From: Candidula unifasciata | Lineage: Eukaryota; Mollusca; Gastropoda; Stylommatophora; Geomitridae | Assembly: GCA_905116865.2 (NCBI GenBank) | Contig: CAJHNH020001590.1 | Coordinates: 1-64,000 of the forward strand | Length of the DNA stretch: 64,000 nt | Direction: 5' to 3' | Shown: piece by piece, positions 5,577-63,205 of the stretch | Numbering within the stretch: position 1 is the stretch's first letter | Layout of the letters: the number at the start of each line of letters is the position of its first letter | Notes under the pieces: generated by a model | The model's database searches: none | Seen by the model: the letters and a program-made list of their open reading frames with translations, nothing else | What the model was told of the DNA's origin: nothing | Translations under genes and position numbers: made by a program

Positions 5577-6506
5577 ATGAAAATTAATTTCACATCCGCT
5601 TGTGCAGATGATGTTAATGAACTTGCAATTAATATTTCCTGGATTATTTTAAGCATGCTGGTCATAGTTCAAAGCTTACTAATAATATTTATCATCTGGC
5701 GAAGTCCAAAACTCCACACAAACACAAACATGCTTATTGTGTCAGTAAGTGCAGGCGATATATTTTTTGCTGTTTCTTGCGAAATCAATGCGACACTGGG
5801 CTTACTGTTTTCCAGTAACATCGTAGCCGAGCTAGTCTTGATGGATACGTTTATGATGGGAGCGTTGTTCTCTACACTGATGTTGTCCATGAACCAGATG
5901 GGAGTTATCGCCGCTGATCGCTACATCAACATTGTCCACCCGTTTTTCTACATCAAACATGTAACCAAGAGGCGTGTTCTGTTAAACATTATTTGTTACT
6001 GGATTCTGGCACTTGTTTATGGAGCAATCCCCTTATTTGTGTACAGAAATACCCGCAACCACGCACTTTGTATCAGCACCCATCCACCCACAGCATACTT
6101 TCTTGTAATAGCGATAGTGTACTCTGTGAATCTCTTGCTAATATTAATTATGTACATCAAAATTGCTATTTTAGCTTACAGACGCAAGAAAGCGGCGCAA
6201 GGAAGACAGTTTTCAAATCCTTTAGCCGATTACACTTACAGAAACTATGGAACACCAGCGTGGAAAAGTGTAAAGTTTTGTGCAATAATGTGTGGTGTTT
6301 ACGTACTGTGTACTTGTCCTTCAGTGATTGCAATTGCAGTTAATTTAAAGTACACTGTTCCAATGTACATTTATAGTCCTTTACAGCAAATGTTTCTTGT
6401 TCATTCCTTAATGAATTTCTTTGTATATATAAATATGAACACACATTTTAAAGCCGCTGTGAGAGAAACGTTTGTAGATATGAAACGGAAGTGTTTTTGT
6501 AAGTAA
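5577..6506 (+). CDS. Receptor A1: rhodopsin-like seven-TM GPCR, candidate chemosensory receptor
   Basis: The 309-residue single-exon ORF has seven hydrophobic helices, a short extracellular N-terminus with an N-glycosylation site (Asn4-Phe-Thr) and Cys9, and a short tail. Class A landmarks are the TM2 Asp (residue 61), AADRYINI with DRY at 114-116, an ECL2 Cys at 165 and a TM6 CTCP (245-248). NFFVY (280-284) stands where NPxxY is expected, and FKAAV forms the start of helix 8. The TM3 Cys, the TM6 Trp and the TM7 Pro are missing, as in all relatives here. The start is the first in-frame ATG; the paralogue's upstream ATG is ATA here. The ORF ends two codons later than receptor 2 (TGT where that gene has TGA). 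It should act at the plasma membrane, coupling an unknown ligand to G proteins. The chemosensory role is inferred from clustered single-exon expansion. Confidence 0.88.
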   Translation: MKINFTSACADDVNELAINISWIILSMLVIVQSLLIIFIIWRSPKLHTNTNMLIVSVSAGDIFFAVSCEINATLGLLFSSNIVAELVLMDTFMMGALFSTLMLSMNQMGVIAADRYINIVHPFFYIKHVTKRRVLLNIICYWILALVYGAIPLFVYRNTRNHALCISTHPPTAYFLVIAIVYSVNLLLILIMYIKIAILAYRRKKAAQGRQFSNPLADYTYRNYGTPAWKSVKFCAIMCGVYVLCTCPSVIAIAVNLKYTVPMYIYSPLQQMFLVHSLMNFFVYINMNTHFKAAVRETFVDMKRKCFCK

Positions 6507-6509
6507 CAT

Positions 6510-6775
6510 AAAGCACCTGTCCCACGCCTTTAGGCGCATTGGGCAAATAGCTCTAGAACTATATTTGTTTAGTCCAATTGGTATTTAGTTGGTGACTTGG
6601 TTAACATTAAACTGATTGCTTTTACTTCCCATGACTTTTTCTGGTGCCATTTAAGGCTGGGTCAACATGGAAGGCAAATCATTTTGAAAAAAAAAAAAAA
6701 ACCTATTAGGATCTGAACCTTTTCAGTTCGGATCCGCAGGCCAGCGTTAGCTGGTACACCACGGCGGTTCCGTCT
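6510..6775 (-). repeat. SINE-A immediately 3' of receptor 1
   Basis: The insertion begins three bases after the TAA stop. The same element sits at the same place after receptor 2 (12435-12685), where the 9-bp target duplication AAGTAATAT is still visible. The left copy here reads AAGTAACAT (6501-6509) and contains the stop codon; the right copy is eroded to AAGTT. Confidence 0.75.
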
Positions 6776-7140
6776 AAGTTAGGACGTGAACATGGCTGAG
6801 TTCTCAGATCTCATGGTGGAAGTTTCCATAGATTTAAAAAGACTATACAGGTTCCCGTCAAGTCTCCCTATATTTGAACAGCATTGTCTGCCGTAGGAAA
6901 GTGACTCCTGTTTCCCTTTCAAAACGTTGACCTTAATAAATGTTTGTTGAAAGATTCGTGCCATGTTCCATTGTCTCATTCACTGTCATGTCAATTGTAT
7001 CACCAATAACCCCCCAAAAAAACTATCAGTTTAAACGAGCACAAATCCTCTGCTTCCCATTATCCCAGTCATAAAAATAAAAATTAACGTTGCGGCTATA
7101 AAGTCTTTAACAACATAAATGGACAATGATAAAATAACAA
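6776..7140. repeat. Downstream flank shared by receptors 1 and 2
   Basis: This stretch aligns with 12690-13060 across blocks such as GTGACTCCTGTTTCCCTT and TCATGGTGGAAGTTT. It marks the 3' side of the tandem duplication unit. I see no gene in it. Confidence 0.6.
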
Positions 7141-7389
7141 ATAAAAACTACACAAAATCACTTGTCTCTAAGATAAGGGTCTGTCATAAAAATATTCATA
7201 AAACGTCTAATCATGTGCTGTAAAACCACTTACTCATCGTCCTGTTAGTTCTCATCCACGTCATCTAACAGGAACGGTACTGTTTGTTCACAGTTCTCAG
7301 AAAAGTTGAGACACAATGTGCCAGGAATGGGCTGTAAGGTGAGCTGAGTAAAGTTCAGTTATGCACCGACATCACATAGCTCGGTACAT

Positions 7390-10935: not shown

Positions 10936-11446
10936 ACCAGGACGTAAATTTTACAACATTCTAAACTTCACAGTTCTCGTCGACTGCCCTAATCATTAAA
11001 ACTTAAATTCACTGAAATTCCATCTATCCCCTTCTCCCCTCCTTTTCTACCCTAATATCTCCTATTTTATTTAATATAACTGAGTTACGGCCCTTTTGGC
11101 GGACCCATTTTTCTGGCTAGTATATTTAATTTCTGTGGCCACACACGTGTCAGATATTCTACTTGCCTGACAGAAACGTGACATTTATCTGATACGTGTA
11201 TATTAAGTGATTTTGTGTATTCTTTTTCACACATGTATATTGTAAATGTAAGTAATTTACCAATGAAGGTTCTCTAGTCGCAGAGTTTAGTGGTGGTTTG
11301 TGTTTGCGATCTAATGATTCTTGCTGCTTTTACTTTTGGTTAGGTTCGATATATACATTCACGATGTCATACTAAAAGTGGCACTAAAACACGCAATGGC
11401 AGCTCTTGTAATTTTAAAAGTGCCACACGGAGAATAAAAGACACAA
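10936..11446. other. AT-rich sequence upstream of receptor 2, nothing recognised
   Basis: No ORF or repeat family is recognised. If receptor 2 has a 5' non-coding exon at 9.7-10.7 kb, this is its intron. Confidence 0.3.
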
Positions 11447-11486
11447 ATTGTTTTCTTACAGACACTGAAAGAATTATTTTCAGAAA
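11447..11486 (+). promoter_or_regulatory. Putative 3' splice site and leader of receptor 2
   Basis: AATTGTTTTCTTACAG ends at 11461, 26 bases before the ATG. The tract is conserved with receptor 1 at 5501-5515, and the surrounding leader is conserved as well. Confidence 0.45.
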
Positions 11487-12425
11487 ATGACTGACAGCGA
11501 ACTTTTGTTTCAGACCGAAAACCGGTCAAGTAATTTCACATCCGCTTGTGCAGAGGATGTTCAGGAAATTAATTTTAGTTTTTCCTGGATTATTTTAAGC
11601 ATGCTGGTCATCGTTAAAAGTTTATTAATAATTTGTATCATCTGGCGAAGTCCAAAACTCCACACAAACACAAACATGCTTATTGTTTCAGTTAGTGCAG
11701 GCGATATATTTTTTGCTATTTCTTGCGAAATCGATGCAACACTGGACATACTGTTTTCAAGCAATATAGTCGCCGACAAAATCTTTATGGACACGTTCAT
11801 AATGGGAGCATTGTTGTCCTCAATGATGTTATCCGTGAACCAGATGGGAGTTATCGCCGCTGATCGCTACATCAACATTGTTTATCCGTTTTTCTACATC
11901 AAACATGTAACCAAGAGGCGTGTTATGTTAAACATTATTTGTTACTGGATTCTGGCATTTGTTTATGGAGCAGTCTCATTACTTGTGTACAAAAATACCA
12001 GCTACCACACACTTTGTATCAGCAGCCATCCACCCATAGCATATTTCCTTGTAATAGCGATAGTGTACTCTGTGAATCTCTTGCTAATATTAGGCATGTA
12101 CATTAAAATTGCCGTTTTGGCTTATAGACGCAAGAAATCTGCGCAAGAAAGACAGTTATCAAATCCTTTAGCCGGAACACCAGCGTGGAAAAGTGTGAAG
12201 TTTTGTGCAATAATGTGTGGTGTTTACGTACTGTGTACTTGTCCTTCAGTGATTGTGATTGCAGTTAATTTAAAGTATACAGTTCCAATGTACATTTATA
12301 TTCCTTTACAGCAAATGTTTCTTGTTCATTCCTTAATGAATTTCTTTGTATATATAAATATGAACACACATTTTAAAGCCGCTGTGAGTCAAACGTTTGA
12401 AGATATGAAACGAAAGTGCTTTTGA
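11487..12425 (+). CDS. Receptor A2: rhodopsin-like seven-TM GPCR, tandem paralogue of A1
   Basis: The 312-residue ORF is highly similar to receptor 1 over its full length. The N-terminus is 12 residues longer because the upstream ATG is intact. It keeps Asn16-Phe-Thr, the N-terminal Cys, the TM2 Asp, AADRYINI with DRY at about 126-128, the ECL2 Cys, CTCP and NFFVY. Seven residues (the DYTYRNY segment) are missing from the third intracellular loop, so SNPLA runs directly into GTPAW; that loop normally contacts the G protein. The gene, its leader, its 3' SINE and at least 370 bases of downstream flank are duplicated from, or with, receptor 1. Membrane location and ligand-gated G-protein signalling are inferred from the family; the ligand is unknown. 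Confidence 0.88.
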   Translation: MTDSELLFQTENRSSNFTSACAEDVQEINFSFSWIILSMLVIVKSLLIICIIWRSPKLHTNTNMLIVSVSAGDIFFAISCEIDATLDILFSSNIVADKIFMDTFIMGALLSSMMLSVNQMGVIAADRYINIVYPFFYIKHVTKRRVMLNIICYWILAFVYGAVSLLVYKNTSYHTLCISSHPPIAYFLVIAIVYSVNLLLILGMYIKIAVLAYRRKKSAQERQLSNPLAGTPAWKSVKFCAIMCGVYVLCTCPSVIVIAVNLKYTVPMYIYIPLQQMFLVHSLMNFFVYINMNTHFKAAVSQTFEDMKRKCF

Positions 12426-12434
12426 AAGTAATAT

Positions 12435-12685
12435 AAAGCACTCCCACGCCTTTTGGGGCACTGGGAAATAGCTCTTAAACTAAATTTGTTTAGTCCAATC
12501 GGCATTTAGTTGGTGACGCGATTAACAATAAACTGATTGCTTTTACTTCCCAGGACTTTTTCTGGTGCCATTTAAGGCTGGGTCAACATGGAAGCCAGGT
12601 CATTAAACAGCCCAATAGGATCTGAACTCACGAAGTTCGGATATGCAGGCCAGCGTTAGCTGCTACACCACGGCGGTTACGTCGT
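12435..12685 (-). repeat. SINE-A immediately 3' of receptor 2
   Basis: Flanked by AAGTAATAT at 12426-12434 and 12686-12694. It shares its insertion site with the SINE after receptor 1, so it was inserted before the tandem duplication. Confidence 0.8.
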
Positions 12686-13705
12686 AAGTAATATGTTAGG
12701 ACTTGAACATGGTTGAGTTCTCTGATCTTATGGTGGAAGTTTGCAGACTGGCTTTGAAAAGACCATATAGGTTCCCGTCGAGTCGCCATCTATTTAAGCT
12801 GCATCATCTACTGTAGGAAAGTGACTCCTGTTTCCCTTGCAGAACTTTGACCTCAATAATGGTTTGTCGAAAAAGTAGGGCTATGATCGGTTGTCTTTGT
12901 CTTTTTCATGTAAATTATTTCAACATAAACTCGAAAAAAAAAAAAAAAAAATCAGTTGAAACGAGCAGAACTATTAGCTTCCCATTATAACAGTCATGAA
13001 CATTAACATGAACGTTGAGGAGATAAAGCCTTCATCAGTATACAAGACAAATGGACACATTTGTTACATTTTAAACGTATGTAGTGATTTCCTCACATTT
13101 TAATAGCATGCAAAGACATGTCTTACATGTGAAACGTATGTAAAGACCTTTCTTACATTTCAAACGTGTTTAAAGAACTTTTTTACAATTTAAACGTATG
13201 TCAAGACATTTTTTATATTTATAACATATGTAAAGACATTTCTTATATTTTGAAAGTCTGTTTCCATTTTTAACGTCTGCAAAGACATTTCTTATAATTC
13301 AAATGTATGTAAAGACCTTTCTTACATTTTAAATGTTTGTAGAGACATTTATTAGATTTCAAACGAAAGTCATTTGTTACATTTTAAACCTTTGTAAAGA
13401 CATTTCTTATTTGTAAAAGCATGTAGAAACTTTTTTTACATTTCAATCGTATGAAGAGTCATTTCTTACATTTTAATCGTTTGTAGAGACATTTTCACAT
13501 TGTAAAAGTATGCAAAGAAATTTCTTACATTTTCAAAGTATGTAGAGACATTTCTTACATTTTAAATGTATGCAAAGACATTTCTTACATTTTAATTGTA
13601 TGTAAAGACCTTTCTTACATTTCAAACGTGTTTAAAGAACTTTATTACAATTTAAACGCATGTGAAGCCATTTGTTACATTTTAAACATATGTAAAGACA
13701 TTTCT

Positions 13706-15255: not shown

Positions 15256-15390
15256 TCTTTTCAGCAAGTAACCGAAATTGATCTTTTTTTAAAGACCCTA
15301 AACATACAATCTAATTTCCTATCCACTTGTGCAAATGACTTTTACACTGTTACCTTCAGTATTTCCTGGATTACTGTGAGCGTGTGACTT
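15256..15390 (+). pseudogene. Receptor relic: leader and N-terminus of a subfamily A GPCR
   Basis: Translation from about 15302 gives a peptide with STCAND and FSISWITVSV, then a stop. It matches the N-terminus and TM1 start of receptors 1 to 3 (TSACADD, NISWIILSM; VPFGISWITLS). Similarity extends upstream through an acceptor-like GTTCTTTTCAG (15254-15264) and the leader. The rest of the receptor is not found downstream. The position equivalent to the receptor 2 ATG is GTA. It lies about 4.5 kb ahead of receptor 3. Confidence 0.6.
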
Positions 15391-16565: not shown

Positions 16566-18033
16566 CAGTGGTTCTCCAACTTCCTAATACCGCGACACTT
16601 TAATACAGATTCTCGTGTCGTGGCTACCATCTAATACAGTTTCTCGTGTTGTGGCTACCCTTTAATACAGTTTCTCGTGTTGTGGCTACCGTTTAATACA
16701 GTTTCTCGTGTTGTGGCTACCCTTTAATACAGATTCTCGTGTTGTGGCTACCCTCTAATACAGTTTCTCGTGTTGTGGCTACCCTTTAATACAGATTCTC
16801 GTGTTGTGGCTACCCTCTAATACAGTTTCTCGTGTTGTGGCTAACCTTTAATACAGTTTCTCGTGTTGTGGCTACCCTTTAATACAGTTTCTCGTGTTGT
16901 GGCAACCCTTTAATACAGTTTCTCGTGTTGTGGCTACCCTCTAATACAGTTTCTCGTGTTGTGGCTAACCTTTAATACAGTTTCTCGTGTTGTGGCTACC
17001 CATTAATACAGTTTCTCGTGTTGTGGCTACCCTTTAATACAGTTTCTCGTGTTGTGGCTACCCTTTAATACAGTTTCTCGTGTTGTGGCTACCCTCTAAT
17101 ACAGTTTCTCGTGTTGTGGCTACCCTTTAATACAGTTTCTCGTGTTGTTGCTGCCCTTTAAAACAGTTTCTCGTGTTGTGGCTACCCTTTAATACAGTTT
17201 CTCGTGTTGTGGCTACCCTTTAATACAGTTTCTCGTTTTGTGGCTATCATTTAATAAACTTTTTCATGTTGTGGCGACCCTTTAATACAGTTTCTCGTGT
17301 TGTGGCTACCCTTTAATACAGTTTTTCGTGTTGTGGCTACCATTTAATAAACTTTTTCAGGTTGTGGCCACCCTTTAATACAGTTTCACTTGTTGTGGCT
17401 ACCATTCAATAAACTTTTTCAGGTTGCGGCGACCCTTTAATAAAGTTTCTCGTGTTGGGGCTACCCTTTCATAAACTTTTTTATGTTGTAGCTACCCTTT
17501 AATACAGTTTCTCGTGTTCTGGCTACCCTTTAACTCAGTTTCTCGTGTTGTGGCTACCCTTTAATAAAGTTTTTCATGTTGTGGCGACCCTTTAATACAG
17601 TTTTACGCTTTGTGGCTACCCTTTAATAAACTGTATCATGTTGTGGCGACCCTTTAATACAGTTTCTCGTGTTGTGGCCATCCTTTAATAAACTTTTACA
17701 TTTTGTGGCTACCCTTTAATGCAGTTTCTCGTGTTAGGGCAACTCTTTAATACAGTTTCTCGTGTTGTAGCTACCCTTTATACAGTTTTACGTGTTGTGG
17801 CTACCTTTAATACAGTTTCTCGTGTTGTGGCTACCCTTTAATTAATTGTTGCATGTTGTGGCGACCCTTTAATACAGTTTCTCATGTTGCGGCGATCACC
17901 AGACGCACACTTATTCTCGTTGCTACATCATAGCTTCAACGAATATTTGTTTTCCGGTGGTCTATGACGATCCCTGTGACAGGTTCGTTCGACCTAAAAA
18001 AAAGGGACGTGACCCACAGGCTGAGAACCGCTG
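16566..18033. mobile_element. SPIN-like hAT MITE expanded internally into a minisatellite
   Basis: The left end CAGTGGTTCTCCAACTTCC and the right end (CCACAGGCTGAGAACCGCTG, ending at 18033) are hAT-type inverted termini like those of 1985-2183. The right arm (TTCTCGTTGCTACATCATAG, then GGTGGTCTATGACGATCCC) matches the same MITE. Between them the segment that is single-copy at 2010-2045 has been amplified about 40 times. Flanking bases CTCTTTA and CTCTAGA are only weakly alike. Confidence 0.65.
16590..17895. repeat. 31-bp tandem array
   Basis: The unit is about TTTAATACAGTTTCTCGTGT followed by TGTGGCTACCC. The left two-thirds is nearly homogeneous. The right third has variant units (AATAAACTTTTTCATGTTG, GGCGACCC). 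Copies are contiguous, without spacers. Confidence 0.9.
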
Positions 18034-19748: not shown

Positions 19749-20681
19749 ATGTCGCGTAATATAACATCCGCTTGTATAGATCAAGCTAAAGATTACAATG
19801 TTCCGTTTGGCATTTCTTGGATTACTCTAAGCACGTTAGTCATCGCTCAAAGTGTACTCATACTTTTTATAATCTGGCGTACTCCAAACCTCCACACGAA
19901 CACAAATATCTTCATTGTATCCGTCACAGTAGCTGACATATTGTACGCTGCTTCCTGTGGAATCAATGCGATATTAAACAGAGTGTTTTTCCAACACATC
20001 GTCACCGACGGTATCTTAATGGATACATTCACAATGGGAGTTACTTATTCCACTCTGATGTTATCCATAAACCAGATGGGAGTTATCGCCGCTGATCGTT
20101 ATATCAACATTATCTATCCGTTTTTCTACATCAAACATGTAACCAGAAGGCGTGTTGTGGTGCTAATTATTTGTTACTGGATTCTGACATTTGTTTATGG
20201 GGCAATACCATTGATTGTATATAGAAATACCCAATATCATAAACTTTGTATCATCAACCATCCACCCATTGAATACTTTCTGGTGATGGTAATAGCTTAT
20301 ATTGCTAATTTCTTTCTAATAATAATTTTGTATATCAAAATAGCTGTTTTGGCTTACAGGCGCAACAAATCTGCACAAGACAGACAGTTATCAAATCCTT
20401 TAACTTTATTAGTTGCCTGCAGAAACTACGGAACGCCAGCTTGGAAAAGTGTGAAGTTTTGTGCAGTAGTGTGTGGAAATTACGTTTTGTGTACTTGTCC
20501 TTCAGGGATAGCTTCTGTAGTTTATTTAAAATATGCAATCCCAATGCTAATTTTTACTCTTTTACAGCAAATGTTTCTCATTCATTCTTTACTAAATTTC
20601 ATAGTATACATCAATATGAACACTAATTTTAAAGCGGCTGTCAGAAAAACATTCGTAGACATAAAAAAACAGTTTATATGA
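19749..20681 (+). CDS. Receptor A3: rhodopsin-like seven-TM GPCR
   Basis: The 310-residue single-exon ORF begins at the first ATG (MSRNITSAC). It has an N-glycosylation site and the conserved N-terminal Cys, seven hydrophobic helices, a VADILYA TM2 motif with Asp, AADRYINI, an ECL2 HKLCIINHPP with Cys, a TM6 CTCP and a TM7 NFIVY. It is clearly subfamily A but more diverged than the receptor 1 and 2 pair. The third intracellular loop carries a short insert (LTLLVACRNY) relative to receptor 1. It has no SINE directly after the stop. Expression and ligand cannot be read from the sequence; a chemosensory role is inferred from the cluster. Confidence 0.87.
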   Translation: MSRNITSACIDQAKDYNVPFGISWITLSTLVIAQSVLILFIIWRTPNLHTNTNIFIVSVTVADILYAASCGINAILNRVFFQHIVTDGILMDTFTMGVTYSTLMLSINQMGVIAADRYINIIYPFFYIKHVTRRRVVVLIICYWILTFVYGAIPLIVYRNTQYHKLCIINHPPIEYFLVMVIAYIANFFLIIILYIKIAVLAYRRNKSAQDRQLSNPLTLLVACRNYGTPAWKSVKFCAVVCGNYVLCTCPSGIASVVYLKYAIPMLIFTLLQQMFLIHSLLNFIVYINMNTNFKAAVRKTFVDIKKQFI

Positions 20682-28520: not shown

Positions 28521-28626
28521 TGAAGTCAAGTCGGGGGGTCTCAATGGCGAAGTGGTCAAGTGGTCCTTCGACACCTGAAGCGTTAAAAGAAGAAGTGAAG
28601 CAGAAGAGGAATCCACACTCGGTGGA

Positions 28627-29115
28627 TGTAATGATGTTATAAATAGGGATAATGTCAGGGGATGATTGGCATAATTGGGGAAGTCCCTGAGAGCATGGGT
28701 TTGAGAATCAGGCGGTCATTCGGTGACTGGGCCCCAGAGAGAAAGGATGGAAAATGAAGCTGTGAAGATGAATGGAGAATGACTAGAGCATGTGGATCTG
28801 AATCGGCGAGGAATGAATGATCGAGAAGGCCAGCTGTGATGGTACCCTGTTTGATTGTCAAAGCCAGCTGTGAATATGTCAGCGTCTATTGTCCGAATGC
28901 TGTAAGTGTATTCACCTGTGATTTGTGTATTGAGCTAACGTGTAAATAAACTCGTGAAATGTGCCGCTGGTGTTAACCGTTGTTAGACGTTGTGTGACCG
29001 TGAAGAGGATCATGTCTGCTTTGATTGAGTTGTGAACCTCTAGACATCAGAGCCAGTGTTAACTCTGCACCACAGATAGCCAGTGTGGAGGAGACACAGA
29101 AGGGCAGTCATTACA
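28627..29115 (+). repeat. 5' LTR (489 bp)
   Basis: Begins TGTAATGATG and ends GTCATTACA. It carries a polyadenylation signal at 28945-28950 and a TATAAATA at 28638-28645. Relative to the 3' LTR it has one 65-bp deletion (after GAGCATGGGTTT) and six substitutions by my count. Confidence 0.93.
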
Positions 29116-34139: not shown

Positions 34140-34166
34140 CGGAATTACACGATACCTCTGCATTAT

Positions 34167-36224: not shown

Positions 36225-36238
36225 AAGGGGAGGAGAGA
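36225..36238 (+). other. Polypurine tract
   Basis: AAGGGGAGGAGAGA lies directly before the TG of the 3' LTR, as expected for the plus-strand primer. Confidence 0.85.
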
Positions 36239-36792: not shown

Positions 36793-36879
36793 GTGGATGA
36801 TACGATTAACATCACGCTGGCTATTTTTTACTTTCCAGTACATTATCCGGTCAAAATTGAGACAAGGCTTGGCAGACTG

Positions 36880-38172: not shown

Positions 38173-38370
38173 CGTTTGAGCTTTAGGGCCCTATACGTGG
38201 AGCTGGGCGTGGGTGTACCAACTGCAGCCGTGAGACAGGAAAACCACACGGGGACTACGCGTCGTTACTTCGACCAGAACAGAATGGACGTTGTTATTCT
38301 AAAAATCAATTGACTATAGAATATTTATCAGTCCATGTTTTTCATCCAATTTTCTAAAATCTGTTTGTTA

Positions 38371-38423
38371 CGTGTTATTTCACAGATAGACCATTATTGC
38401 CAGTGAGTCGAAGCTATAAAAAC
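38371..38423 (+). promoter_or_regulatory. Putative 3' splice site before receptor 4
   Basis: ACGTGTTATTTCACAG ends at 38385, 38 bases before the ATG. This spacing resembles that seen before receptors 1 and 2. Confidence 0.4.
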
Positions 38424-39353
38424 ATGAAAGACAATGCAACATCTACCTGTGGATATGATGAATATCTCGGATATACAGGATTCCTCGTCAGTGTCTTGGT
38501 CATGTGTGAAAGCGTTTTGACATTAGTGACAATTTGGCGTACCCAGGAACTTCACACCAAGCAGTATATTTTTATTGCTTCTTTGGTAGTTGGTGATATA
38601 ATGTTGTCACTAAGCTTCATAGCGACAATTTGCATTCGTCTAGTCTCGACAAACTCATACCATGAAAGACTGAATATCATCAGCAACCTTGCTTATGGAA
38701 CCATGTTTTCATCTGTAATTTCTGGTAGTTTACACATGAGCATAATTGCCGTTGACCGCTATATTAGAATAGCTTATCCGTTTTATTACATAACACATAT
38801 GACCACCCAACGTACAGTTACAATACTATCCGTCACCTATGTATTATATATAACTAACGTGTGTTGTCGCGTCATTCTATACCAGGACACTAAATATAAC
38901 AAATGCTTCAATATTATTCATTTTTATCCCAATATAACTATACATATCATCTGCAGCATTGTAGTTTTCATTTGTTACTTTAAAATAGCCAGGATTTCTA
39001 TCACCCACAAGCAAGCTGCCATATCTAGGCGTCTACACACACTAGATATAGAGGGAGCTACTATTTCCAGAAGTAACAGAGATGCTGTCATGCGAAGTGT
39101 GCTCTTTTTCGTGGCCGTGTGCGGGATATTTTTCATTCTGTGTACCCCGCCCTTTGTAGTTAGCTGGATTGGATTCTATTACAATGTGCCAGACGTTTTG
39201 CTAGCTGTATTGACGAATTTTTTCCCTCTGCATTCTTTGTTGAATTTTGTAATAAGCTGCTGGTTGAATCAAGGCTTCCGGAAGGCGTTAAAAAGGATCT
39301 TTTCTGATTTGAGAACTGGCTGCATTCGTAAATGTTGTGTATCCCGATTGTGA
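38424..39353 (+). CDS. Receptor B1: rhodopsin-like seven-TM GPCR, subfamily B
   Basis: The 309-residue single-exon ORF starts at the first ATG (MKDNATSTCGY), which aligns with the MGDNST start of the other B receptors. It has an N-glycosylation site and N-terminal Cys, seven hydrophobic helices, a TM2 VVGDIMLS Asp, IAVDRYIRIAYPFYY, an ECL2 Cys in YNKCFNII, a TM6 CTPP and a TM7 NFVIS where NPxxY is expected. The C-terminal tail is Cys-rich (CIRKCC), a possible palmitoylation site. It is the only B member on the plus strand and the most diverged of the three. Ligand is unknown; plasma-membrane G-protein coupling is inferred from the family. Confidence 0.87.
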   Translation: MKDNATSTCGYDEYLGYTGFLVSVLVMCESVLTLVTIWRTQELHTKQYIFIASLVVGDIMLSLSFIATICIRLVSTNSYHERLNIISNLAYGTMFSSVISGSLHMSIIAVDRYIRIAYPFYYITHMTTQRTVTILSVTYVLYITNVCCRVILYQDTKYNKCFNIIHFYPNITIHIICSIVVFICYFKIARISITHKQAAISRRLHTLDIEGATISRSNRDAVMRSVLFFVAVCGIFFILCTPPFVVSWIGFYYNVPDVLLAVLTNFFPLHSLLNFVISCWLNQGFRKALKRIFSDLRTGCIRKCCVSRL

Positions 39354-40890: not shown

Positions 40891-41320
40891 GAGATATGAA
40901 TTAAAATTTCCTTCAACCAGATAATTTTTTCTCTTTGAAGTGCGTTAAACCACTTGAATGAGAATTGACTGCTTTGCACGTGACAGGCTGTCAGGTATTT
41001 TAAAAAAAAAAAATAATTATTTATGAGTTCATCCTCGTCTACATGCATTATGTTTGTACAAGTATTATGTTTTTTTCCTCTTTCTCTTCATTCTCTATTT
41101 CTGTACATTTCATCATTCTTTAGCAACTCCATGTGTTTCTTTTCTTTTCTGTTAATGAAGTGATTTTATATTGTTTTTTCAGATGTTGACATTCATCATT
41201 CTGTTATTTTTAAGTCTCGCATTTTTTTACTAGTAGGGTGGGCATCTGTTATCAATACTTATTTTTCGATACATATATAACTGTGCATAAATGGGTATGT
41301 GTAAGGGCTTGTGTTTGTTT

Positions 41321-43280
41321 GTATGTATGTATGTATGTATGTATGTATGTATGTATGTATGTATGTATGTATGTATGTATGTATGTATGTATGTATGTAT
41401 GTATGTATGTATGTATGTATGTATGTATGTATGTATGTATGTATGTATGTATGTATGTATGTATGTATGTATGTATGTATGTATGTATGTATGTATGTAT
41501 GTATGTATGTATGTATGTATGTATGTATGTATGTATGTATGTATGTATGTATGTATGTATGTATGTATGTATGTATGTATGTATGTATGTATGTATGTAT
41601 GTATGTATGTATGTATGTATGTATGTATGTATGTATGTATGTATGTATGTATGTATGTATGTATGTATGTATGTATGTATGTATGTATGTATGTATGTAT
41701 GTATGTATGTATGTATGTATGTATGTATGTATGTATGTATGTATGTATGTATGTATGTATGTATGTATGTATGTATGTATGTATGTATGTATGTATGTAT
41801 GTATGTATGTATGTATGTATGTATGTATGTATGTATGTATGTATGTATGTATGTATGTATGTATGTATGTATGTATGTATGTATGTATGTATGTATGTAT
41901 GTATGTATGTATGTATGTATGTATGTATGTATGTATGTATGTATGTATGTATGTATGTATGTATGTATGTATGTATGTATGTATGTATGTATGTATGTAT
42001 GTATGTATGTATGTATGTATGTATGTATGTATGTATGTATGTATGTATGTATGTATGTATGTATGTATGTATGTATGTATGTATGTATGTATGTATGTAT
42101 GTATGTATGTATGTATGTATGTATGTATGTATGTATGTATGTATGTATGTATGTATGTATGTATGTATGTATGTATGTATGTATGTATGTATGTATGTAT
42201 GTATGTATGTATGTATGTATGTATGTATGTATGTATGTATGTATGTATGTATGTATGTATGTATGTATGTATGTATGTATGTATGTATGTATGTATGTAT
42301 GTATGTATGTATGTATGTATGTATGTATGTATGTATGTATGTATGTATGTATGTATGTATGTATGTATGTATGTATGTATGTATGTATGTATGTATGTAT
42401 GTATGTATGTATGTATGTATGTATGTATGTATGTATGTATGTATGTATGTATGTATGTATGTATGTATGTATGTATGTATGTATGTATGTATGTATGTAT
42501 GTATGTATGTATGTATGTATGTATGTATGTATGTATGTATGTATGTATGTATGTATGTATGTATGTATGTATGTATGTATGTATGTATGTATGTATGTAT
42601 GTATGTATGTATGTATGTATGTATGTATGTATGTATGTATGTATGTATGTATGTATGTATGTATGTATGTATGTATGTATGTATGTATGTATGTATGTAT
42701 GTATGTATGTATGTATGTATGTATGTATGTATGTATGTATGTATGTATGTATGTATGTATGTATGTATGTATGTATGTATGTATGTATGTATGTATGTAT
42801 GTATGTATGTATGTATGTATGTATGTATGTATGTATGTATGTATGTATGTATGTATGTATGTATGTATGTATGTATGTATGTATGTATGTATGTATGTAT
42901 GTATGTATGTATGTATGTATGTATGTATGTATGTATGTATGTATGTATGTATGTATGTATGTATGTATGTATGTATGTATGTATGTATGTATGTATGTAT
43001 GTATGTATGTATGTATGTATGTATGTATGTATGTATGTATGTATGTATGTATGTATGTATGTATGTATGTATGTATGTATGTATGTATGTATGTATGTAT
43101 GTATGTATGTATGTATGTATGTATGTATGTATGTATGTATGTATGTATGTATGTATGTATGTATGTATGTATGTATGTATGTATGTATGTATGTATGTAT
43201 GTATGTATGTATGTATGTATGTATGTATGTATGTATGTATGTATGTATGTATGTATGTATGTATGTATGTATGTATGTAT
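41321..43280. repeat. (GTAT)490 tetranucleotide microsatellite
   Basis: 1,960 bases of GTAT with no interruption that I can see. Neither strand contains a stop in any frame, so it creates false ORFs of about 680-750 codons with Met-Tyr-Val-Cys or Ile-His-Thr-Tyr periodicity. Flanks are GTGTTTGTTT and TATGCATGCATGTGTG. Confidence 0.98.
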
Positions 43281-43679
43281 TATGCATGCATGTGTGTATG
43301 TCTGTGTGCGTGTCTGTGTGTGTGAATATACAACCATGCTGTGTTGAATACTGCTTGATATTCATTTTATGTGTACTGTCATATGAACATAACATGCACA
43401 TTATAAATTTTCCCGTAGCACACAGAATTTACACGCGTCGTTCTCTTTCGTTTTTGCGTCCATCCTTGCCAGATCCACTCTTCCCCCCCCCCCCTCCCCC
43501 GTTAACACATTTTTACAGACGTTATTTCATTTAATACTGTCTTTTATCAGCTTTCGTTCATGAATGATCTTTACGATGTCTCCTTTGTCCAGTACGAGTG
43601 TTCCTGCAGCTATCGCTTTTGTAGCAACAACAACAACAACAAAGTGTGCTTTTAATTAGTATGTATATATAAATATTTA

Positions 43680-44990: not shown

Positions 44991-45204
44991 TCACAATTTT
45001 GAATTGGAACGCATGTGTATCAGAATAATTTAAGTGAGTTCAAAGTTCATACGGAGTCACAGCAGAGTATGTCTCAGTTATGTGGTTGTATAGGATCCCA
45101 TCAGTTCAGTTTCGTTTGTTGGTTGAAACTGTGCGGATTGTGAAATGTTTACAAGACGACGGCTCCCGACTGTCACTGGACACTGAGTTGAAATGCAAAT
45201 CATG

Positions 45205-46001
45205 TCGGATAACTTCACATCTGTGTGTGTAAAAGATTTCAAACATTACGCTGTTCCGTTCAGCATTTCTTGGACTACTCTAAGCGTGTTAGTCATCGCT
45301 CAAATTTACTAATAACATTCATCATCTGGGTCGCCAACGCAGTTATGTTGGATACATTCCTAATGGGAGCTTGCTACTCGTCTCTCATGATGTCCATGAA
45401 TCAGTTAGGAGTTATCGCCGCTGATCGCTACATCAACATTGTTCATCCCTTCTTCTACATCAAACACATTACCAGGAGGCGAGTTGTGACAATAATTATT
45501 TGTTACTGGATTCTAGCTATTGTTTATGGAGCAATCCCACTACTTGTTTACGGCGATACTAAGTATCATAAACTTTGTATCATCAGCAACCCACCCCCGA
45601 ATATGTCAGTAGTTTACATTGTGAACTTATTTTTGATATTAACTCTCTATATAAAAATTGCTGTTTTGGCTTACAGACGTAAGACAGCTGCGCAAGACAG
45701 ACAGTTATCAAATTCTCTAACCAATAACGTTAGGAGAAACTACGGAACCCCAGCTTGAAAAAGTGTGAAGTTTTGTGCTATAATGTGTGGCATTCACGTT
45801 CTGTGTACATGTCCTTCTGCGATTATGGCTTTAGTTAATGTAAAATATACATTTCCATTTTACGTTTATGGTCCTTTACAGCAATTGTATCTTGTTCATT
45901 CTTTATTAAATTTCTTTGCATATATAAACATCAACACTAATTTTAAAGCAGCTGTGAGAAAAACGTTTGTAGACTTGAAAAATCGGTTCCATTCAGACTA
46001 A
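45205..46001 (+). pseudogene. Receptor A pseudogene: subfamily A seven-TM GPCR with three lesions
   Basis: The ATG (MSDNFTSVC) opens a frame matching the N-terminus of receptors 1 to 3. A one-base deletion near 45305 in TM1 shifts it to a stop (45311). In the other frame, FIIW joins directly to VANAVMLDTF, so about 41 residues (loop 1, all of TM2 and extracellular loop 1) are deleted in frame near 45331. Downstream it keeps GVIAADRYINIV, the ECL2 Cys, the TM5 region and RRNYGTPA. The conserved Trp codon of GTPAW is TGA (45756-45758). TM6 and TM7 follow intact to TAA at 45999. Outside these lesions similarity is high, so inactivation may be recent. Confidence 0.88.
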
Positions 46002-53444: not shown

Positions 53445-54374
53445 TCAATAGCATCTGGTGAAGCAGCAAGTTTTCAAATCAACAAAAGTCTTCTTTAACG
53501 CCTTAAAGAAAGATTGGTTCATACCGCAGCAAATGATAAAATTCAGTATGGAATGTAATGGGTAGCAATGGGTAGCAATGACTTTAATTACATCTGAAAC
53601 CATGTTTGTGAGAGCAAAAGTTGTGATCACAAACGGTGTTAATGTCAAAATGAAAAATACCCCAAACATAGCCAAAAAGAATTTAACACTTTTCATCACC
53701 ATCATACGATTATTCCTGTTTATTGTATCGCTCTCCATGTCTCCTATTTGTTGACGTCTGGATGTGGCAGCTTGTTTGTGTCTGATGGCAATCCACGCAA
53801 TTTTAGAATAGCACAAAAATGCAACAATTAAATCGACGGCAAAAACTGACAAATTTGAGTAATAATATACCTCTGGCTCATTAGTGTTAATACAGTGTTT
53901 ATATTTACTGTCTCGGTAGAGTATAGGTGGAATACAGGTATCGATGAGACACAGAATGTATGTAACAGAAAGTATTTTGATTACCCGTTGTTGCGTCATA
54001 TTTCTTATATAATAAAACGGATGAGCTATGCGTATGTAACGGTCGATAGCAATGATACTCATGTGTAACATATCCAAGAGTACACAAGAAAACATCATCC
54101 CATATAAAAAATTGTTTATAATTATCATGTCTTCAACAATGGAGTTTAACCCCGTTATATGGATAATTGCTGTGGCAAAAAAGCTAATAGACAGAAATAT
54201 GTCGGCGATAGCCAGGGACAGGATGAAAATGTACTGGTTGGTGTGTAGTTCCCGGGTCCGGCAGATGGTCACAATTGTCAGCACACTATTGCAGATCACA
54301 ATCAGACACAGCGACACTCCAGTATATCCCATAGGGATGTTATACCCGCAAGAGGATGTCGAATTATCTCCCAT
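53445..54374 (-). CDS. Receptor B2: rhodopsin-like seven-TM GPCR, subfamily B
   Basis: The 309-residue ORF begins at the first ATG (MGDNSTSSCGYN). It has an N-glycosylation site and N-terminal Cys, seven helices, a TM2 AIADIFLS Asp, IAIDRYIRIAHPFYY, an ECL2 Cys in YKHCINTNEP, a third loop with AIRHKQAA, a TM6 LTLTP and a TM7 NFIIC. The C-terminal tail is Cys-rich (TCCFTRCY), suggesting lipidation. It is very similar to receptor B3, with flanks duplicated as well. It lies on the minus strand, 53 bases past the shared end of the duplication near a GATGAT-rich stretch. Role in sensing is inferred; ligand unknown. Confidence 0.88.
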   Translation of the reverse strand: MGDNSTSSCGYNIPMGYTGVSLCLIVICNSVLTIVTICRTRELHTNQYIFILSLAIADIFLSISFFATAIIHITGLNSIVEDMIIINNFLYGMMFSCVLLDMLHMSIIAIDRYIRIAHPFYYIRNMTQQRVIKILSVTYILCLIDTCIPPILYRDSKYKHCINTNEPEVYYYSNLSVFAVDLIVAFLCYSKIAWIAIRHKQAATSRRQQIGDMESDTINRNNRMMVMKSVKFFLAMFGVFFILTLTPFVITTFALTNMVSDVIKVIATHCYPLHSILNFIICCGMNQSFFKALKKTFVDLKTCCFTRCY

Positions 54375-56877: not shown

Positions 56878-57110
56878 AGATAGTATTGATACCTGCACAA
56901 TACTGTATATGCTGGTCCCTTGGAGGATAGGCAGAGCGAGAGGACTTCTCCGCAATTGTCATCAGATATTGATACCTGCACAATACAGTACCTGCTGGTC
57001 CCTTTGAGGATAGGCAGAGCGAGAGGACTTCTCCGCAATTATCACCAGATAGGACTGAAACTCACATAACACAATACAAAGTATTTGCCAGAGCGAGAGG
57101 CCTTCTCCGC
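56878..57110 (+). repeat. Tandem 5' UTR units of the non-LTR element
   Basis: Two copies of about 85 bp contain ATTGATACCTGCACAATAC, GGATAGGCAGAGCGAGAGG and ACTTCTCCGCAATT. A third partial unit (CAGAGCGAGAGGCCTTCTCC) runs into the start codon. Tandem promoter-bearing units are known from other non-LTR elements. Confidence 0.7.
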
Positions 57111-57117
57111 AAGCACC

Positions 57118-58858
57118 ATGTCTCGGAGAAACAAACCTAACGGAAAGCGCAACGGACAGAGGAAACAGCCCACTGACAGATCCACTCGATCTAACTCGGA
57201 GGCCAGGAAGACGCAGACAGATACTACCGAACCACAGGAAGACGCCCCTACTACCAGTGAGGCCCTGAGTGACGTCCCAGCGTCACCTGAACCAACACAG
57301 CCAAGTCCACAGACATCTCCAGATCGACGAAAGACAGGCAGCTATGAATTTCCTGCCACAATATTTCTACGACAGACCAACTCGGGCCGGACAGCAATCA
57401 CTACACTGGCAACGCTAACATTGATCAATATGCTGGAGATCATGTTAGGCAAGAGGGCAGTCGCAAAGATTAGGAGAACTCGAGAAGGAGTGATAGCTTC
57501 ACTAAACAGAACCAACCGCACCTCAGACATGCTGGATGACATCCAACACGACGGCAAGAAAGAACTCCGACTATCCGAGGAGATAACTGTGACGGCCACC
57601 ATCTTCCAGAATGTAAGACGCTGGGTGATCCGAAGAGTCAACCTGCAATGGAGCAACGAAGAAATTCTGCAACAAATAAGGAAAGAAAACCCAAATGTCA
57701 ACATCAACCAAGCAGAGAGACTGGGCTCAAAACGGCATCCATTGCCAGTGGCGGTGATAACATCGGAAGGAGAAAAACATCCCGGATAAAGTCTACCTAG
57801 ATCAAAGAATGCAAAGACCAGAGCAATACGTGCCACAGGTGATCCAGTGCTCTCGTTGTCAAAAAGCATGGCACTCCCGGGCCACTTGTGTGAGCGAACA
57901 TGAAGTATGCCGATACTGTTCACAACACCATGCCTTCAACAATTGCCCGCTGGCAAAGCTGGACACAGACTTTAAGTCACCCAATACGAACAGAAAGTGC
58001 GCCAACTGCTACGGCCAGCACAGCACCAGGTACCTGGGGTGCCCCTATCTGCAACAATGTAGAGAAATTGCAACCACGGCCATACGGGATAAGATTCCAT
58101 ACCATGAGGCCCGCAGAAGACACGAAGCAACCCAAGGCATAACCGCAGCCATTACCACCAAATTGAGCAACGAGGTGGCTCAACTCAAAAGTGACATCCA
58201 AGCTCTCAGAGACGAGAAAGACGCATCCAAAACCCAACGAGATGAAGACAGAGATGAAATAACAGGCCTGAGAGCTATAATGCAGGCGACTCTTGACACC
58301 CAGAAACGGATGACAGCAGAGATGACGAAATTCAAGGAGGACATCATGAATGCACTGGCCACTATCCAGACACAAAAGGAACAACCAACTAAGGCAAGGG
58401 AAGACGAGGCGGGCATCAATGATCTGCGGGTTAACCAACAACTTCTCGCGAAAGAAATCGCAATGATCAAGAAGGCACTGGCTGAAACAGAGGAAAAGTT
58501 ACGAAGAGCATACGAAGAAAACAACAGACTTAACAAGGAACTGCAAGCAACCAACAGAGTGATGGAAGAAAGAGAGAAAGCACGGAAAGAGGCAACAAGA
58601 AGGCAGCAAATACAGGGAGCCGAGACCCAGAAAAAGCCGCATCAAACACCACATAAGAAAACTCAGGCATCGCTGATGAAACAGTTTCCGTTGGCAACAA
58701 TTGACCAAATTAACCAACGCATCATGGAGATGGAGGACCCGAACTTCTATAACTCAGAACTGCAGGATGATGATGTTTTTTGGTCATCACCAGAGGAACC
58801 ACATCGACAGCCAAAATTTGAAGTCAAACGAGGTCGACATCGTTACCCCAAACACTAA
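57118..58858 (+). pseudogene. ORF1 (gag-like) of the non-LTR element, one frameshift
   Basis: It starts at the ATG of MSRRNKPNGKRNGQRK. The first 220 codons have a basic, Ser/Thr/Pro-rich N-terminus and an RRM-like middle (SYEFPATIFLRQ, PLPVAVITSEGE). A one-base shift in an A-run near 57774-57779 moves the frame; the second part (from about 57778 to 58858) has three zinc knuckles: CSRCQKAWHSRATC, CRYCSQHHAFNNC and CANCYGQHSTRYLGC. A coiled coil of about 150 residues and a basic tail follow. This is the jockey/I-type ORF1 plan. The protein would bind element RNA. Apart from the shift it is open, so it is fairly young. Confidence 0.85.
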
Positions 58859-60412: not shown

Positions 60413-60454
60413 TTCTTTTGATAATTCCTTAAGTGACAGAACTGTTCCTATTTA

Positions 60455-60905: not shown

Positions 60906-60969
60906 GGGTTTCCCCTCTGTTTATTTTTGGGAATGACGTATACATACCGGAAGCTACCAATCAAATCAT

Positions 60970-61380
60970 CATTATCATGTAGCAGGTCCTTTGCAGAATG
61001 TCGCTCTCATCACAGTCTGCCTGAACGAAACTCGGTCTTTCGCCAGTTCTCCTGCCTCATGTACTCTCATAGTCAAGGAGTCACTTATATCCTGTGCCCA
61101 TCTTCGTGTCGGTCGGCCCCTGCTTCTCCTTCCATGCACTCTGCTATAATTTTTTCCTATCCGTCGTGGCGCTTGATATAACCAAAATATTTCAGCTTCC
61201 GAGACAGGATGCTGTTTATTAACCAATCTTCCTTGATATTCAGATCTTTCAAGATGTCAGGATTTCTCCTCTTCTTTGTCCAAGATATTCTGAGAATCTT
61301 TCTATAGCATTTCTGCTCAAAAGCCCCTAATCTCTTTTTAAGTACAGAGAGATAGTCCACGACTCACATCCGTATGTAGC
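60970..61380 (-). pseudogene. RTE LINE 3' fragment
   Basis: From the high-coordinate end it reads MDYLSVLKKRLGAFEQKCYR, KILRISWTKKRRNPDILKD, NIKEDWLINSILSRKLKYFG, then (next frame) GRPTRRWAQDISDSLTMRVH and TFCKGPAT, then a CATGATAATGATG tail. It is the best-preserved member of this 3' subgroup, with one frame change. Confidence 0.7.
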
Positions 61381-61390
61381 CACAGGGAAG

Positions 61391-62215
61391 ATGCATGCTC
61401 TCGAAATTCTAATTTTTATCTCCTTGCTGTTGCTTAACCATAGACATTTAAGGCTGTACCAATCAAATACCTTTCTTAAATGTTTGTGTATTCTAGACAA
61501 ATCATTAGGGTCTACTGTGTTCGAAAATTGTTATTCAACATATGCTTCGTTAATACAAATTTCTGTAATCTATGGTGTCATTTCAATGATTTGAAATGAA
61601 TTCTGTCCGTATTTACAGTAACTATAGCTTTCGATTTTTTTTTGTCTGATTGTGTTTTTCTATCTTTCCACTTCTTTCTATGAGTGCCGATTAATGCATT
61701 TTCTGTTCCTTTATTACTAAATAATATTTAACTGCCTAAAGGGTTTCCTCTCTGTTTATGAGATCAACTGAAAAAAAAAAAATCATTAACTAGAAGCAGA
61801 GAGGTGGTTTGTGAGAAGAACTCAAAGAATATAATGGAGTGATAGAAAAAAAAAAAACACACACACGAAACAGTCATCATCGGGAAGATGAAAGTAGTAC
61901 ACTTAACACAACAAAAATACGTGGACAGTGGGTATTTTGTAGACATGCTATCAAAAGGAATATATTCGAGAACTTGGTAAGAACTTCAAAGATTGATGGA
62001 CGAGAGCAAAAAAGAAGGCAAAGAGACATATACCTGAATGACTTTGTCACATTTGTGAGGCGTGACCAGAACATTGACTTAATCAGTGATTTCTGGTGTT
62101 CTGAGAGGTGGTGAAACATGGCAGCTTACGCACATGACTGTGGCGACGATAAGACCTAAACATGAAAGGAAATTAGTTTATAAAGATCTCGGCAACTTTT
62201 CACAGTAATTACGAT
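61391..62215. other. Intergenic, nothing recognised
   Basis: Short frames only. A-runs at 61770 and 61847 may mark old retroposon ends. Confidence 0.3.
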
Positions 62216-62269
62216 TACGATGATAGTGATGATGATGAAGATGATGTTGATGATGACGACGATACATAT

Positions 62270-63205
62270 TTATTCTTGATAGCATGCAGTGAAGCAGCAA
62301 GTTTGCAGATCAACAAGAGTCTTCTTTAAAGCTTTGAAGAAAGATTGGCTCATGCTGCAGCAAATGATGAAATTCAGCACAGAATGGAGCGGAAAACAAT
62401 AGGTAGCAATTACTTTAAGTACATCTGAGACAATACTGGAGGCAGCAAGGTTTGTAATAACAAATGGGGGCAATGATAACATGAAAAATACCCCAAACAT
62501 GGCCAAAAAGAATTTCACACTTTTCATCACCATCATACGGTTGTTTCTGTTGATTATATTGCTCTCGGTGTCCCGTGTTTGTTGTCGCCTGAACATGGCG
62601 GCTTGTTTGTGTCTGATGGCAATCCACGCAATCTTCGAATAGCACAAAAACGCAACAATTGTATTGATGGAAAGAATGGATGTATTTGAATAGTAGTATT
62701 CCGTTGGCTCGTTGGTATTAAGACAGCGTTTATATGTGTCGTCCTGATACGCTATGGCCGGAATAAAGGTGTCGATGAAACACAGAACATATGCAACAGA
62801 AAGTATTTTAACGGTACGTTGCTTTGTCATATATTTTATATAGTAAAATGGATGCGCAATATGTATGTATCGGTCAACGGCAATTATGCTCATATGTAAC
62901 ATATCCAGGACTACACAAGAGAACAACATCCCGTATAACAGTTTGTTTATAATTCCGAAGTCTTCAACAATGGAATTTAACCCGGTTAGGTGGATAATTG
63001 CTGTGGCAAAAAAGCTTAAAGCCATCAGTATGTCAGCGATCGAAAGGGATACAATGAAAATATACTGGTTAGTGTGTAGTTCACGAGTCCGGCAAATGGT
63101 CACAATTGTCAACACGCTATTGCTGATCACAATCATGCACAGAGATATTCCTGTATATCCAACAAGGACATTATACCCACAGGAGAATGTCGAATTATCT
63201 CCCAT
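62270..63205 (-). CDS. Receptor B3: rhodopsin-like seven-TM GPCR, subfamily B
   Basis: The 311-residue ORF begins at the first ATG (MGDNSTFSCGYN), matching B2. It has an N-glycosylation site, N-terminal Cys, seven helices, a TM2 SIADILMA Asp, IAVDRYIHIAHPFYY, an ECL2 Cys in YKRCLNTNEP, the AIRHKQAA loop, a TM6 SLPP and a TM7 NFIIC. The tail is TCCFTACYQE. Differences from B2 are scattered substitutions, several in ECL2 and TM4-TM5, regions that often shape ligand binding. A GATGATGATG-rich stretch lies just beyond its 3' end, as for B2, so both flanks are part of the duplication. Ligand and tissue are unknown. Confidence 0.88.
   Translation of the reverse strand: MGDNSTFSCGYNVLVGYTGISLCMIVISNSVLTIVTICRTRELHTNQYIFIVSLSIADILMALSFFATAIIHLTGLNSIVEDFGIINKLLYGMLFSCVVLDMLHMSIIAVDRYIHIAHPFYYIKYMTKQRTVKILSVAYVLCFIDTFIPAIAYQDDTYKRCLNTNEPTEYYYSNTSILSINTIVAFLCYSKIAWIAIRHKQAAMFRRQQTRDTESNIINRNNRMMVMKSVKFFLAMFGVFFMLSLPPFVITNLAASSIVSDVLKVIATYCFPLHSVLNFIICCSMSQSFFKALKKTLVDLQTCCFTACYQE

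What the first reader, a model, noticed from the sequence alone, without database searches (positions are those of the whole stretch)
5577..63205. Cluster of six intact single-exon GPCRs in two subfamilies, with a pseudogene and a relic
Seen: six ORFs of 309-312 residues with seven hydrophobic helices and DRY, an A group and a B group, plus two dead A members. Known: molluscs carry lineage-specific expansions of uninterrupted rhodopsin-like receptors expressed in sensory organs. Inference: a birth-and-death chemosensory receptor locus. The family identity may be undescribed.
Basis: partly seen in the sequence, partly recalled or inferred. Interest (0 to 1): 0.8.

Follow-up and report, generated by a model that had tools for sequence, protein, structure and literature searches.

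The report
Land-snail smell-receptor-like gene cluster
A stretch of land-snail DNA carries a row of closely related cell-surface receptor genes, part of a larger family that is probably used to sense chemicals and keeps gaining and losing copies; the kind is familiar from other snails, but this particular family looks undescribed.

Summary
In detail: six uninterrupted ORFs (309-312 aa) match Pfam 7tm_1, with one A-type pseudogene and one A-type relic. [quoted passage not shown] The cluster continues past the window with three more long ORFs, two of a third subfamily, plus fragments. A and B are not sisters but two of several subfamilies in a clade of at least 59 long ORFs of this genome, found with one query. 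The clade excludes eight other receptors of the snail, three of them checked as amine-type. It lacks Asp3.32 and several class-A hallmark residues, and mostly has an N-terminal plus an ECL2 cysteine. Thirteen of 13 pairs tested show dN/dS below 1. A chemosensory birth-and-death family is the best reading; expression and ligand are untested. The kind is known from Aplysia and Biomphalaria; I saw no description of this family in the listings searched.

The parts
5577..6506 (+). A1, intact 7TM receptor ORF, 309 aa
   Evidence: 84% identical to A2; duplicate block with A2 runs 5454-7125 / 11400-13057 at 83.5%
11487..12425 (+). A2, intact 7TM receptor ORF, 312 aa; the ATG that A1 uses is changed and an upstream ATG gives the start
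15268..15384 (+). Relic of an A-type gene, N-terminal 39 codons only
   Evidence: tblastn with A2, E 1.4e-4 on the whole window and 6e-7 on the stretch
19749..20681 (+). A3, intact 7TM receptor ORF, 310 aa
   Evidence: model pLDDT 80.3; its counterpart on scaffold C4208 has a longest ORF of 120 aa in the fetched stretch
38424..39353 (+). B1, intact 7TM receptor ORF, 309 aa; pairs with P0004, a database protein of unnamed source, 57% identical
   Evidence: Pfam scan on a form one codon longer
45202..45989 (+). A-type pseudogene: TM1-TM2 stretch missing with a change of frame, one in-frame stop; an intact counterpart is the 314-aa ORF at C659:5806-6750
53445..54374 (-). B2, intact 7TM receptor ORF, 309 aa; counterpart on C659 96.8% identical in protein
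   Evidence: Pfam scan on a form without the first codon
62270..63205 (-). B3, intact 7TM receptor ORF, 311 aa; counterpart on C6752 91.6% identical in protein

Best explanation
The window holds the first part of an array of single-exon class-A G-protein-coupled receptors in the land snail Candidula unifasciata. They belong to one large receptor family, distinct from the amine receptors and other GPCRs compared here, which grows by DNA-level local and segmental duplication and loses copies by mutation. Shown here: the genes, the family clade, the scaffold clusters, dN/dS below 1, the pseudogenes, and the absence of Asp3.32 and other class-A hallmarks. Inferred: each receptor sits in the membrane of sensory cells of tentacles, lips or skin, its variable outer half binds an external small molecule or mucus-borne cue, and its conserved DRY / second-loop inner half couples to a G protein. 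Inferred too: a disulfide between the N-terminal cysteine (A1 C9) and the ECL2 cysteine (A1 C165) closes the outer pocket in place of the usual TM3-ECL2 bond.
For: Six of six window proteins match 7tm_1. Tree of 87 rows: 71 core rows in one clade at SH-aLRT 98, 59 of them Candidula ORFs of 286-378 aa. A tree of 38 rows that includes eight other receptors of the same genome keeps a sample of 20 core rows as one clade at 97/97. Three of those eight were searched against the PDB and match amine receptors at 3e-83 to 9e-114, while A1 reaches 7e-14 and B3 4e-17. Of 71 rows: Asp3.32 0, Pro5.50 0, Trp6.48 0, Pro7.50 0, Cys3.25 0, Arg3.50 65. Both cysteines in 62, neither in 6, one only in 3 of 71, Fisher p 1.3e-6. 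dN/dS 0.15-0.52 in 13 of 13 pairs, every bootstrap upper bound below 1. TM outer halves vary more than inner halves, 2.50 against 1.87 bits, with TM ends set by hand. Duplicated blocks include flanking DNA, so copying was at DNA level. Gastropod precedents with expression in sensory organs: Aplysia (PMC2700072, passages) and Biomphalaria, one gene (PMC5440852, passages).
Against: No expression, localisation or ligand data. Counts are lower bounds from one query protein; further genome searches did not complete. In the tree the insect receptor P0035 joins the family and its two neighbour groups at 96/93, on a long branch, so a remote tie to such receptors is open. Cysteine co-loss is not independent: of five independent pairs that differ in the N-terminal cysteine, two go the same way, none opposite, three do not differ, which cannot reach significance; one of the rows lacking it starts inside TM1 and says nothing. 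12 of 71 rows have a cysteine in 3.22-3.28, at 3.26, next to the canonical place. Six of 59 Candidula rows lack Arg3.50. The 13 pairs share members and are not independent; B1 is not among them, and its own pairs are saturated at synonymous sites. Conserved inner halves are usual for GPCRs (recalled), so that contrast is weak.
Confidence: 0.67

Rival explanations
1. They are receptors for internal signals (amines, peptides or lipids) that have multiplied in land snails, not sensors of the outside.
For: The best PDB sequence and fold matches are amine, adenosine, cannabinoid and similar receptors. Planarian GPCRs have been tied to germline development (PMC4862687, title and start of abstract only).
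Against: Asp3.32 absent in 71 of 71; matches to solved amine receptors are weak compared with the snail's own amine-type receptors; dozens of clustered copies with short or broken ones among them would be unusual for internal receptors (recalled).
Confidence: 0.2
2. A special case of the best explanation: pheromone or mucus-cue receptors, used in mating or trail following.
For: Pheromone sensing was suggested for the Aplysia rhinophore receptors (PMC2700072, abstract passage); the land snail Euglandina follows mucus trails (PMC3937710, search listing only).
Against: Nothing in the sequence points to a ligand class.
Confidence: 0.2
3. Members of the described Aplysia AcCRa-c chemoreceptor subfamilies.
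For: Similar architecture: mostly single-exon, clustered, rhodopsin-like genes of 300-odd codons (PMC2700072).
Against: Most members of Aplysia subfamilies a and b carry an ERC signature (PMC2700072, passages); at that place the 59 Candidula rows read D or E, then R in 53, then Y or F.
Confidence: 0.07
4. Part of the apparent expansion is an assembly artefact (uncollapsed haplotypes).
For: C659, C4208 and C6752 carry counterparts of window genes.
Against: Window and C659 agree piece by piece at 69-90%, coding DNA included, over the 9 kb of C659 that I could read, against about 1.09% heterozygosity in PMC8496239 (passage). Genes on one scaffold cannot be alleles of each other.
Confidence: 0.08

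Closest known systems
Aplysia californica candidate chemosensory receptors AcCRa, b, c (PMC2700072, passages)
   Same: Clustered, mostly single-exon rhodopsin-like receptors; a retrotransposon between two genes of one pair
   Different: Most members of a and b have an ERC signature after TM3; lengths 319-368 aa in a and b and up to 433 in c; AcCRa has one intron. The snail family mostly has DRY and a median of 314 aa
Biomphalaria glabrata candidate chemosensory receptors, 241 genes in 14 subfamilies (PMC5440852, passages)
   Same: Clustered seven-TM receptor genes, truncated members among them, one shown in tentacle
Biogenic amine receptors, including the snail's own
   Same: Class A fold, DRY, best solved-structure matches
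   Different: No Asp3.32 in 71 of 71; outside the family clade in the tree
Vertebrate odorant receptors (recalled)
   Same: Single coding exon of about 310 aa, tandem clusters, birth and death, short N-terminus with a glycosylation site
   Different: No sequence kinship beyond class A tested; different conserved motifs
Class-A receptors without the TM3-ECL2 disulfide, such as melanocortin, S1P and LPA receptors (recalled)
   Same: Canonical Cys3.25 absent; an alternative extracellular cysteine link is plausible
   Different: No specific sequence kinship shown

Membership tests
Class A (rhodopsin-like) GPCR | Pfam 7tm_1 over cut-off | tested here: met
   six of six window ORFs, 60 to 86 bits against cut-off 30.5; of three further ORFs on the scaffold two are over it and one (C1, 28.2 bits) is under
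Class A (rhodopsin-like) GPCR | Seven-helix class-A fold | tested here: met
   models of A3 and B2; Foldseek of A3 gives query TM-scores 0.67-0.79 in the 50 listed rows
Class A (rhodopsin-like) GPCR | Hallmark residues N1.50, D2.50, R3.50, W4.50, P5.50, W6.48, P6.50, P7.50 | tested here: inconclusive
   of 71 rows: N1.50 12, D2.50 62, R3.50 65, W4.50 63, P5.50 0, W6.48 0, P6.50 60, P7.50 0; positions set by hand from A1 landmarks, numbering recalled
Biogenic amine receptors | Asp3.32 | tested here: not met
   0 of 71
Biogenic amine receptors | Falls inside the amine clade in a tree | tested here: not met
   three of its eight own-genome receptors were checked as amine-type, the other five not
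Opsins | Retinal-binding Lys7.43 | tested here: not met
   no K at 7.43 in 70 rows, one further row has a gap
Neuropeptide receptors | Falls inside a named neuropeptide-receptor clade | tested here: inconclusive
   few such rows in the trees; the long-branch insect receptor P0035, not identified here, joins the wider group at 96/93
Aplysia AcCR subfamilies | ERC signature at the end of TM3 | tested here: not met
   residue 3.51 is Y or F in 59 of 59 Candidula rows and Y in 11 of 12 others, the twelfth (P0012) reading DRC; three rows hold the letters ERC somewhere, in the two whose place I saw it is ECL2
Aplysia AcCR subfamilies | Tree placement with AcCR sequences | not testable with these tools
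   AcCR sequences were not at hand
Biomphalaria candidate chemosensory receptors | Sequence kinship to the 14 subfamilies | not testable with these tools
Chemosensory receptors (functional) | Expression in sensory epithelium | not testable with these tools
   no expression data
Chemosensory receptors (functional) | Clustered, multi-copy, single-exon family with broken copies | tested here: met
   restriction to one lineage is not settled

The most novel reading that the evidence does not exclude
This is a previously undescribed major odorant-receptor family of land snails, which replaced the usual TM3-ECL2 disulfide by an N-terminus-ECL2 one and the Trp6.48 / NPxxY activation parts by Thr6.48 / NFxxY, and which grew during the move to land.
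Probability: 0.3. Interest if true: 0.65.

Novelty: new variant of a known kind. Interest (0 to 1): 0.48.

Why it matters
I saw no land-snail odorant-receptor family among the rows listed by the paper searches (open-licence PMC papers; several lists were capped at 8-25 of up to 861 papers). Land snails find food and mates largely by smell (recalled). A defined family with genomic coordinates makes it testable which genes do this, and whether a receptor set grew on land. The shared loss of several class-A hallmark residues also offers a natural experiment on which parts of a GPCR are dispensable.

Tried and rejected
Orthology between species: the window pseudogene is 92.5-94.1% identical to the Candidula protein P0001 in its two pieces, which first looked like an orthologue in a second species.

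A broad-profile protein search recovered only P0012 and P0001 of the relatives already known; its silence about other molluscs carries little weight.

Haplotype duplication as the source of the C659 counterparts: judged unlikely on divergence (against PMC8496239), not excluded.

Cysteine coupling as statistical proof of a disulfide: not accepted, because only two independent pairs go the same way. The models cannot show the bond, their N-termini being under pLDDT 50 over residues 1-8.

A 5' untranslated exon: splice-acceptor-like stretches lie upstream of A1, A2 and B1 but nothing tests them.

NCBIfam scan of four of the six window proteins gave nothing.

Rows dropped before the tree: 18 of 81 loci with a longest ORF under 280 aa; and of the 43 database proteins listed were used. 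Of the 25 not used, six are Candidula or window proteins (P0001, P0003, P0011, P0013, P0014, P0016) represented by their genomic ORFs; the other 19 are more distant receptors. The 81 loci are 78 places chosen's matches off the window scaffold (some places join several match rows; a weak tail was left out) plus three on the window scaffold. The smaller tree used 24 family and neighbour rows picked by hand, six of the database receptors and eight own-genome receptors.
Full report
What is there. All six match Pfam 7tm_1 well over its cut-off. Fifty single-base shuffles of the window, two long simple repeats cut out, gave no ATG-started ORF of 300 aa or more; the real sequence has ten, mobile-element ORFs included. 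An A-type pseudogene lies at 45202-45989 and an A-type relic of 39 codons at 15268-15384. The two groups are real: 66-84% identity inside A, 52-77% inside B, 27-34% between them.

Where it comes from. The window is the first 64,000 bases of a 157,928-bp scaffold of a 1.34-Gb genome. Five proteins named Candidula unifasciata came up in the searches. P0011, P0013, P0014 and P0016 occur in this genome letter for letter, and the first 164 of 187 residues of P0001 do. Scaffold lengths agree for four of the five; the fifth, C1022, reads 200,000 here against 207,057 in the database. The genome paper gives 7,180 scaffolds over 10 kb, close to the 7,176 held, but a total of 1.29 Gb (PMC8496239, passages). 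The organism is therefore Candidula unifasciata, a geomitrid land snail, with high confidence.

The cluster goes on. Past the window the same scaffold has two ORFs of a third subfamily (312 codons each, 71,732-72,670 and 83,538-84,476), a fourth B-type ORF at 92,895-93,839, broken A-type pieces at about 90.1-91.9 kb, and a fragment of another subfamily at 101.6 kb. One of the two third-subfamily ORFs falls just under the Pfam cut-off. Part of the scaffold between 123 and 153 kb reads N.

The family. One search of the genome with P0011 gave 122 scored matches out of 305 candidates. I fetched 78 places off the window scaffold and took three on it; of these 81 loci 63 have an ORF of at least 280 aa and 18 do not. 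In a tree of 87 rows, 71 form one clade (SH-aLRT 98): 59 Candidula ORFs, the six window genes among them, and 12 database proteins without a named organism. A group of seven on scaffold C7103 is the next relative; three further Candidula rows lie outside. B joins P0005, P0007, P0010 and two C7094 loci in a 13-row group (99). A joins loci on C796, C2023 and C1337 with less support (80 and 92); A with C2023 has 98/94 in the smaller tree. So A and B are two of several subfamilies and not sisters; the deepest order is unsettled. Scaffolds with most loci are C7094 (13 long ORFs, 1 short), C659 (10, 2), C7045 (5, 4) and C3136 (5, 0). All these are lower bounds from a single query.

Birth and death. 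A1 and A2 share a duplicated block of 1.7 kb at 83.5%, B2 and B3 one of 1.0 kb at 79.4%. Scaffold C659 holds a collinear copy of parts of the window's 44-55 kb, 69-90% identical piece by piece, coding DNA included (I read 9 kb of it). That is too divergent for alleles at the reported 1.09% heterozygosity. The copies have decayed differently: the window's A pseudogene has an intact counterpart on C659, whereas A3, intact in the window, has a counterpart on C4208 whose longest ORF is 120 aa. Thirteen of 13 pairs have dN/dS between 0.15 and 0.52, every bootstrap upper bound below one; the pairs share members, and B1 is not among them because its synonymous sites are saturated. The genes compared are thus under purifying selection.

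What the proteins are like. Class-A numbering was set by hand from A1 landmarks. Of 71 rows Arg3.50 is kept in 65, Asp2.50 in 62 and Trp4.50 in 63, but Pro5.50, Trp6.48, Pro7.50, Cys3.25 and Asp3.32 occur in none, and Asn1.50 in 12. Twelve rows have a cysteine at 3.26 instead. The N-terminus is short with a glycosylation sequon in 70 of 71 and mostly a cysteine; a cysteine in ECL2 goes with it: both in 62, neither in six, one in three. On the tree, two of five independent pairs go in step, none opposed, three show no difference, which is suggestive only. AlphaFold models are helical bundles with an uncertain N-terminus, so they cannot show the bond. Foldseek finds dopamine, adenosine, cannabinoid and adrenergic receptors alike, that is, class A without a closer relative.

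What they are not. A1 and B3 reach 7e-14 and 4e-17 against solved amine receptors; three of the snail's own amine-type receptors reach 3e-83 to 9e-114. A tree with eight own-genome receptors and six database GPCRs keeps a sample of 20 core rows as one clade at 97/97. Against a clean separation, the insect receptor P0035 joins the family and its neighbours there at 96/93 on a long branch, and few neuropeptide receptors were included. Most members of Aplysia subfamilies a and b carry an ERC signature (PMC2700072, passages) that the family lacks at that place. Biomphalaria's 241 receptors in 14 subfamilies (PMC5440852, passages) could not be compared by sequence.

Most likely working. External molecules bind the variable outer half, the conserved inner half activates a G protein, and each sensory cell reports one or a few receptors. 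The fold, family and evolution are shown; the site of expression, ligand and coupling are inferred by analogy with Aplysia and Biomphalaria. Six of 59 Candidula rows have lost Arg3.50, so some may be failing genes or signal otherwise.

Novelty. The kind is known in gastropods. I saw no paper on this family or on land-snail GPCR chemoreceptors among the rows listed, which cover open-licence PMC papers only and were capped lists. Hints in print: the Bulinus genome paper ties GPCR expansions to olfactory organs in general terms (PMC8861042, passages), and the genome paper of the slug Laevicaulis reports enrichment of GPCR activity among expanded genes (PMC13336835, passages). The Arion genome paper has no hit for 'receptor', 'olfact' or 'chemo' in its held main text (PMC9392753, find), nor the Candidula paper for 'receptor', 'GPCR' or 'olfact'. 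I rate it a new variant of a known kind. In this revision the confidence of the best explanation went from 0.68 to 0.67 because of the P0035 placement.

Noticed in passing
28625-36796: LTR retroelement between A3 and B1: direct repeats 28697-29119 / 36374-36796 at 98.1% and 28625-28702 / 36237-36314 at 100%, a gag/protease-like ORF, then integrase domains upstream of reverse transcriptase and RNase H, an order recalled as unusual for Gypsy-type elements (Gmr1-like). The integrase part is split over two ORFs.
   Followed up: partly
57085-58858: Two ORFs, the second with a cysteine-rich zinc-knuckle-like stretch, looking like a non-LTR element ORF1 (recalled resemblance); no Pfam match over its cut-off.
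   Followed up: no
41312-43305: Tetranucleotide array of about 499 copies (TGTA); the five longest ORFs listed all run through it and are meaningless.
   Followed up: no
16598-17893: 31-bp minisatellite of about 42 copies between the relic and A3.
   Followed up: no
about 5500-5577, 11440-11487 and 38370-38424: Splice-acceptor-like stretches (pyrimidine-rich run then CAG) upstream of A1, A2 and B1, which would fit an intron in the 5' untranslated region.
   Followed up: no
L019 733-1671 (scaffold C1589 about 71.7 kb) and L086 (C6752): C1 reads LEMY and the C6752 counterpart of B3 reads VDQY in place of the DRY motif, so Arg3.50 is lost; six of 59 Candidula rows lack it.
   Followed up: partly
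L045 (C659:5806-6750) and P0001: The public protein P0001 is 187 aa, yet the genomic ORF is 314 aa and identical for the first 164 residues: the public gene model looks wrong at its end.
   Followed up: partly
L001/L008, L003/L004, L005/L007: Six of the eight other receptors of the snail in the tree form three close pairs on different scaffolds, as would be expected from the ancient duplication at the base of Stylommatophora reported in PMC9392753 (passage).
   Followed up: no
scaffold C7103, 195-230 kb: A neighbouring cluster of seven receptor ORFs outside the core clade.
   Followed up: no
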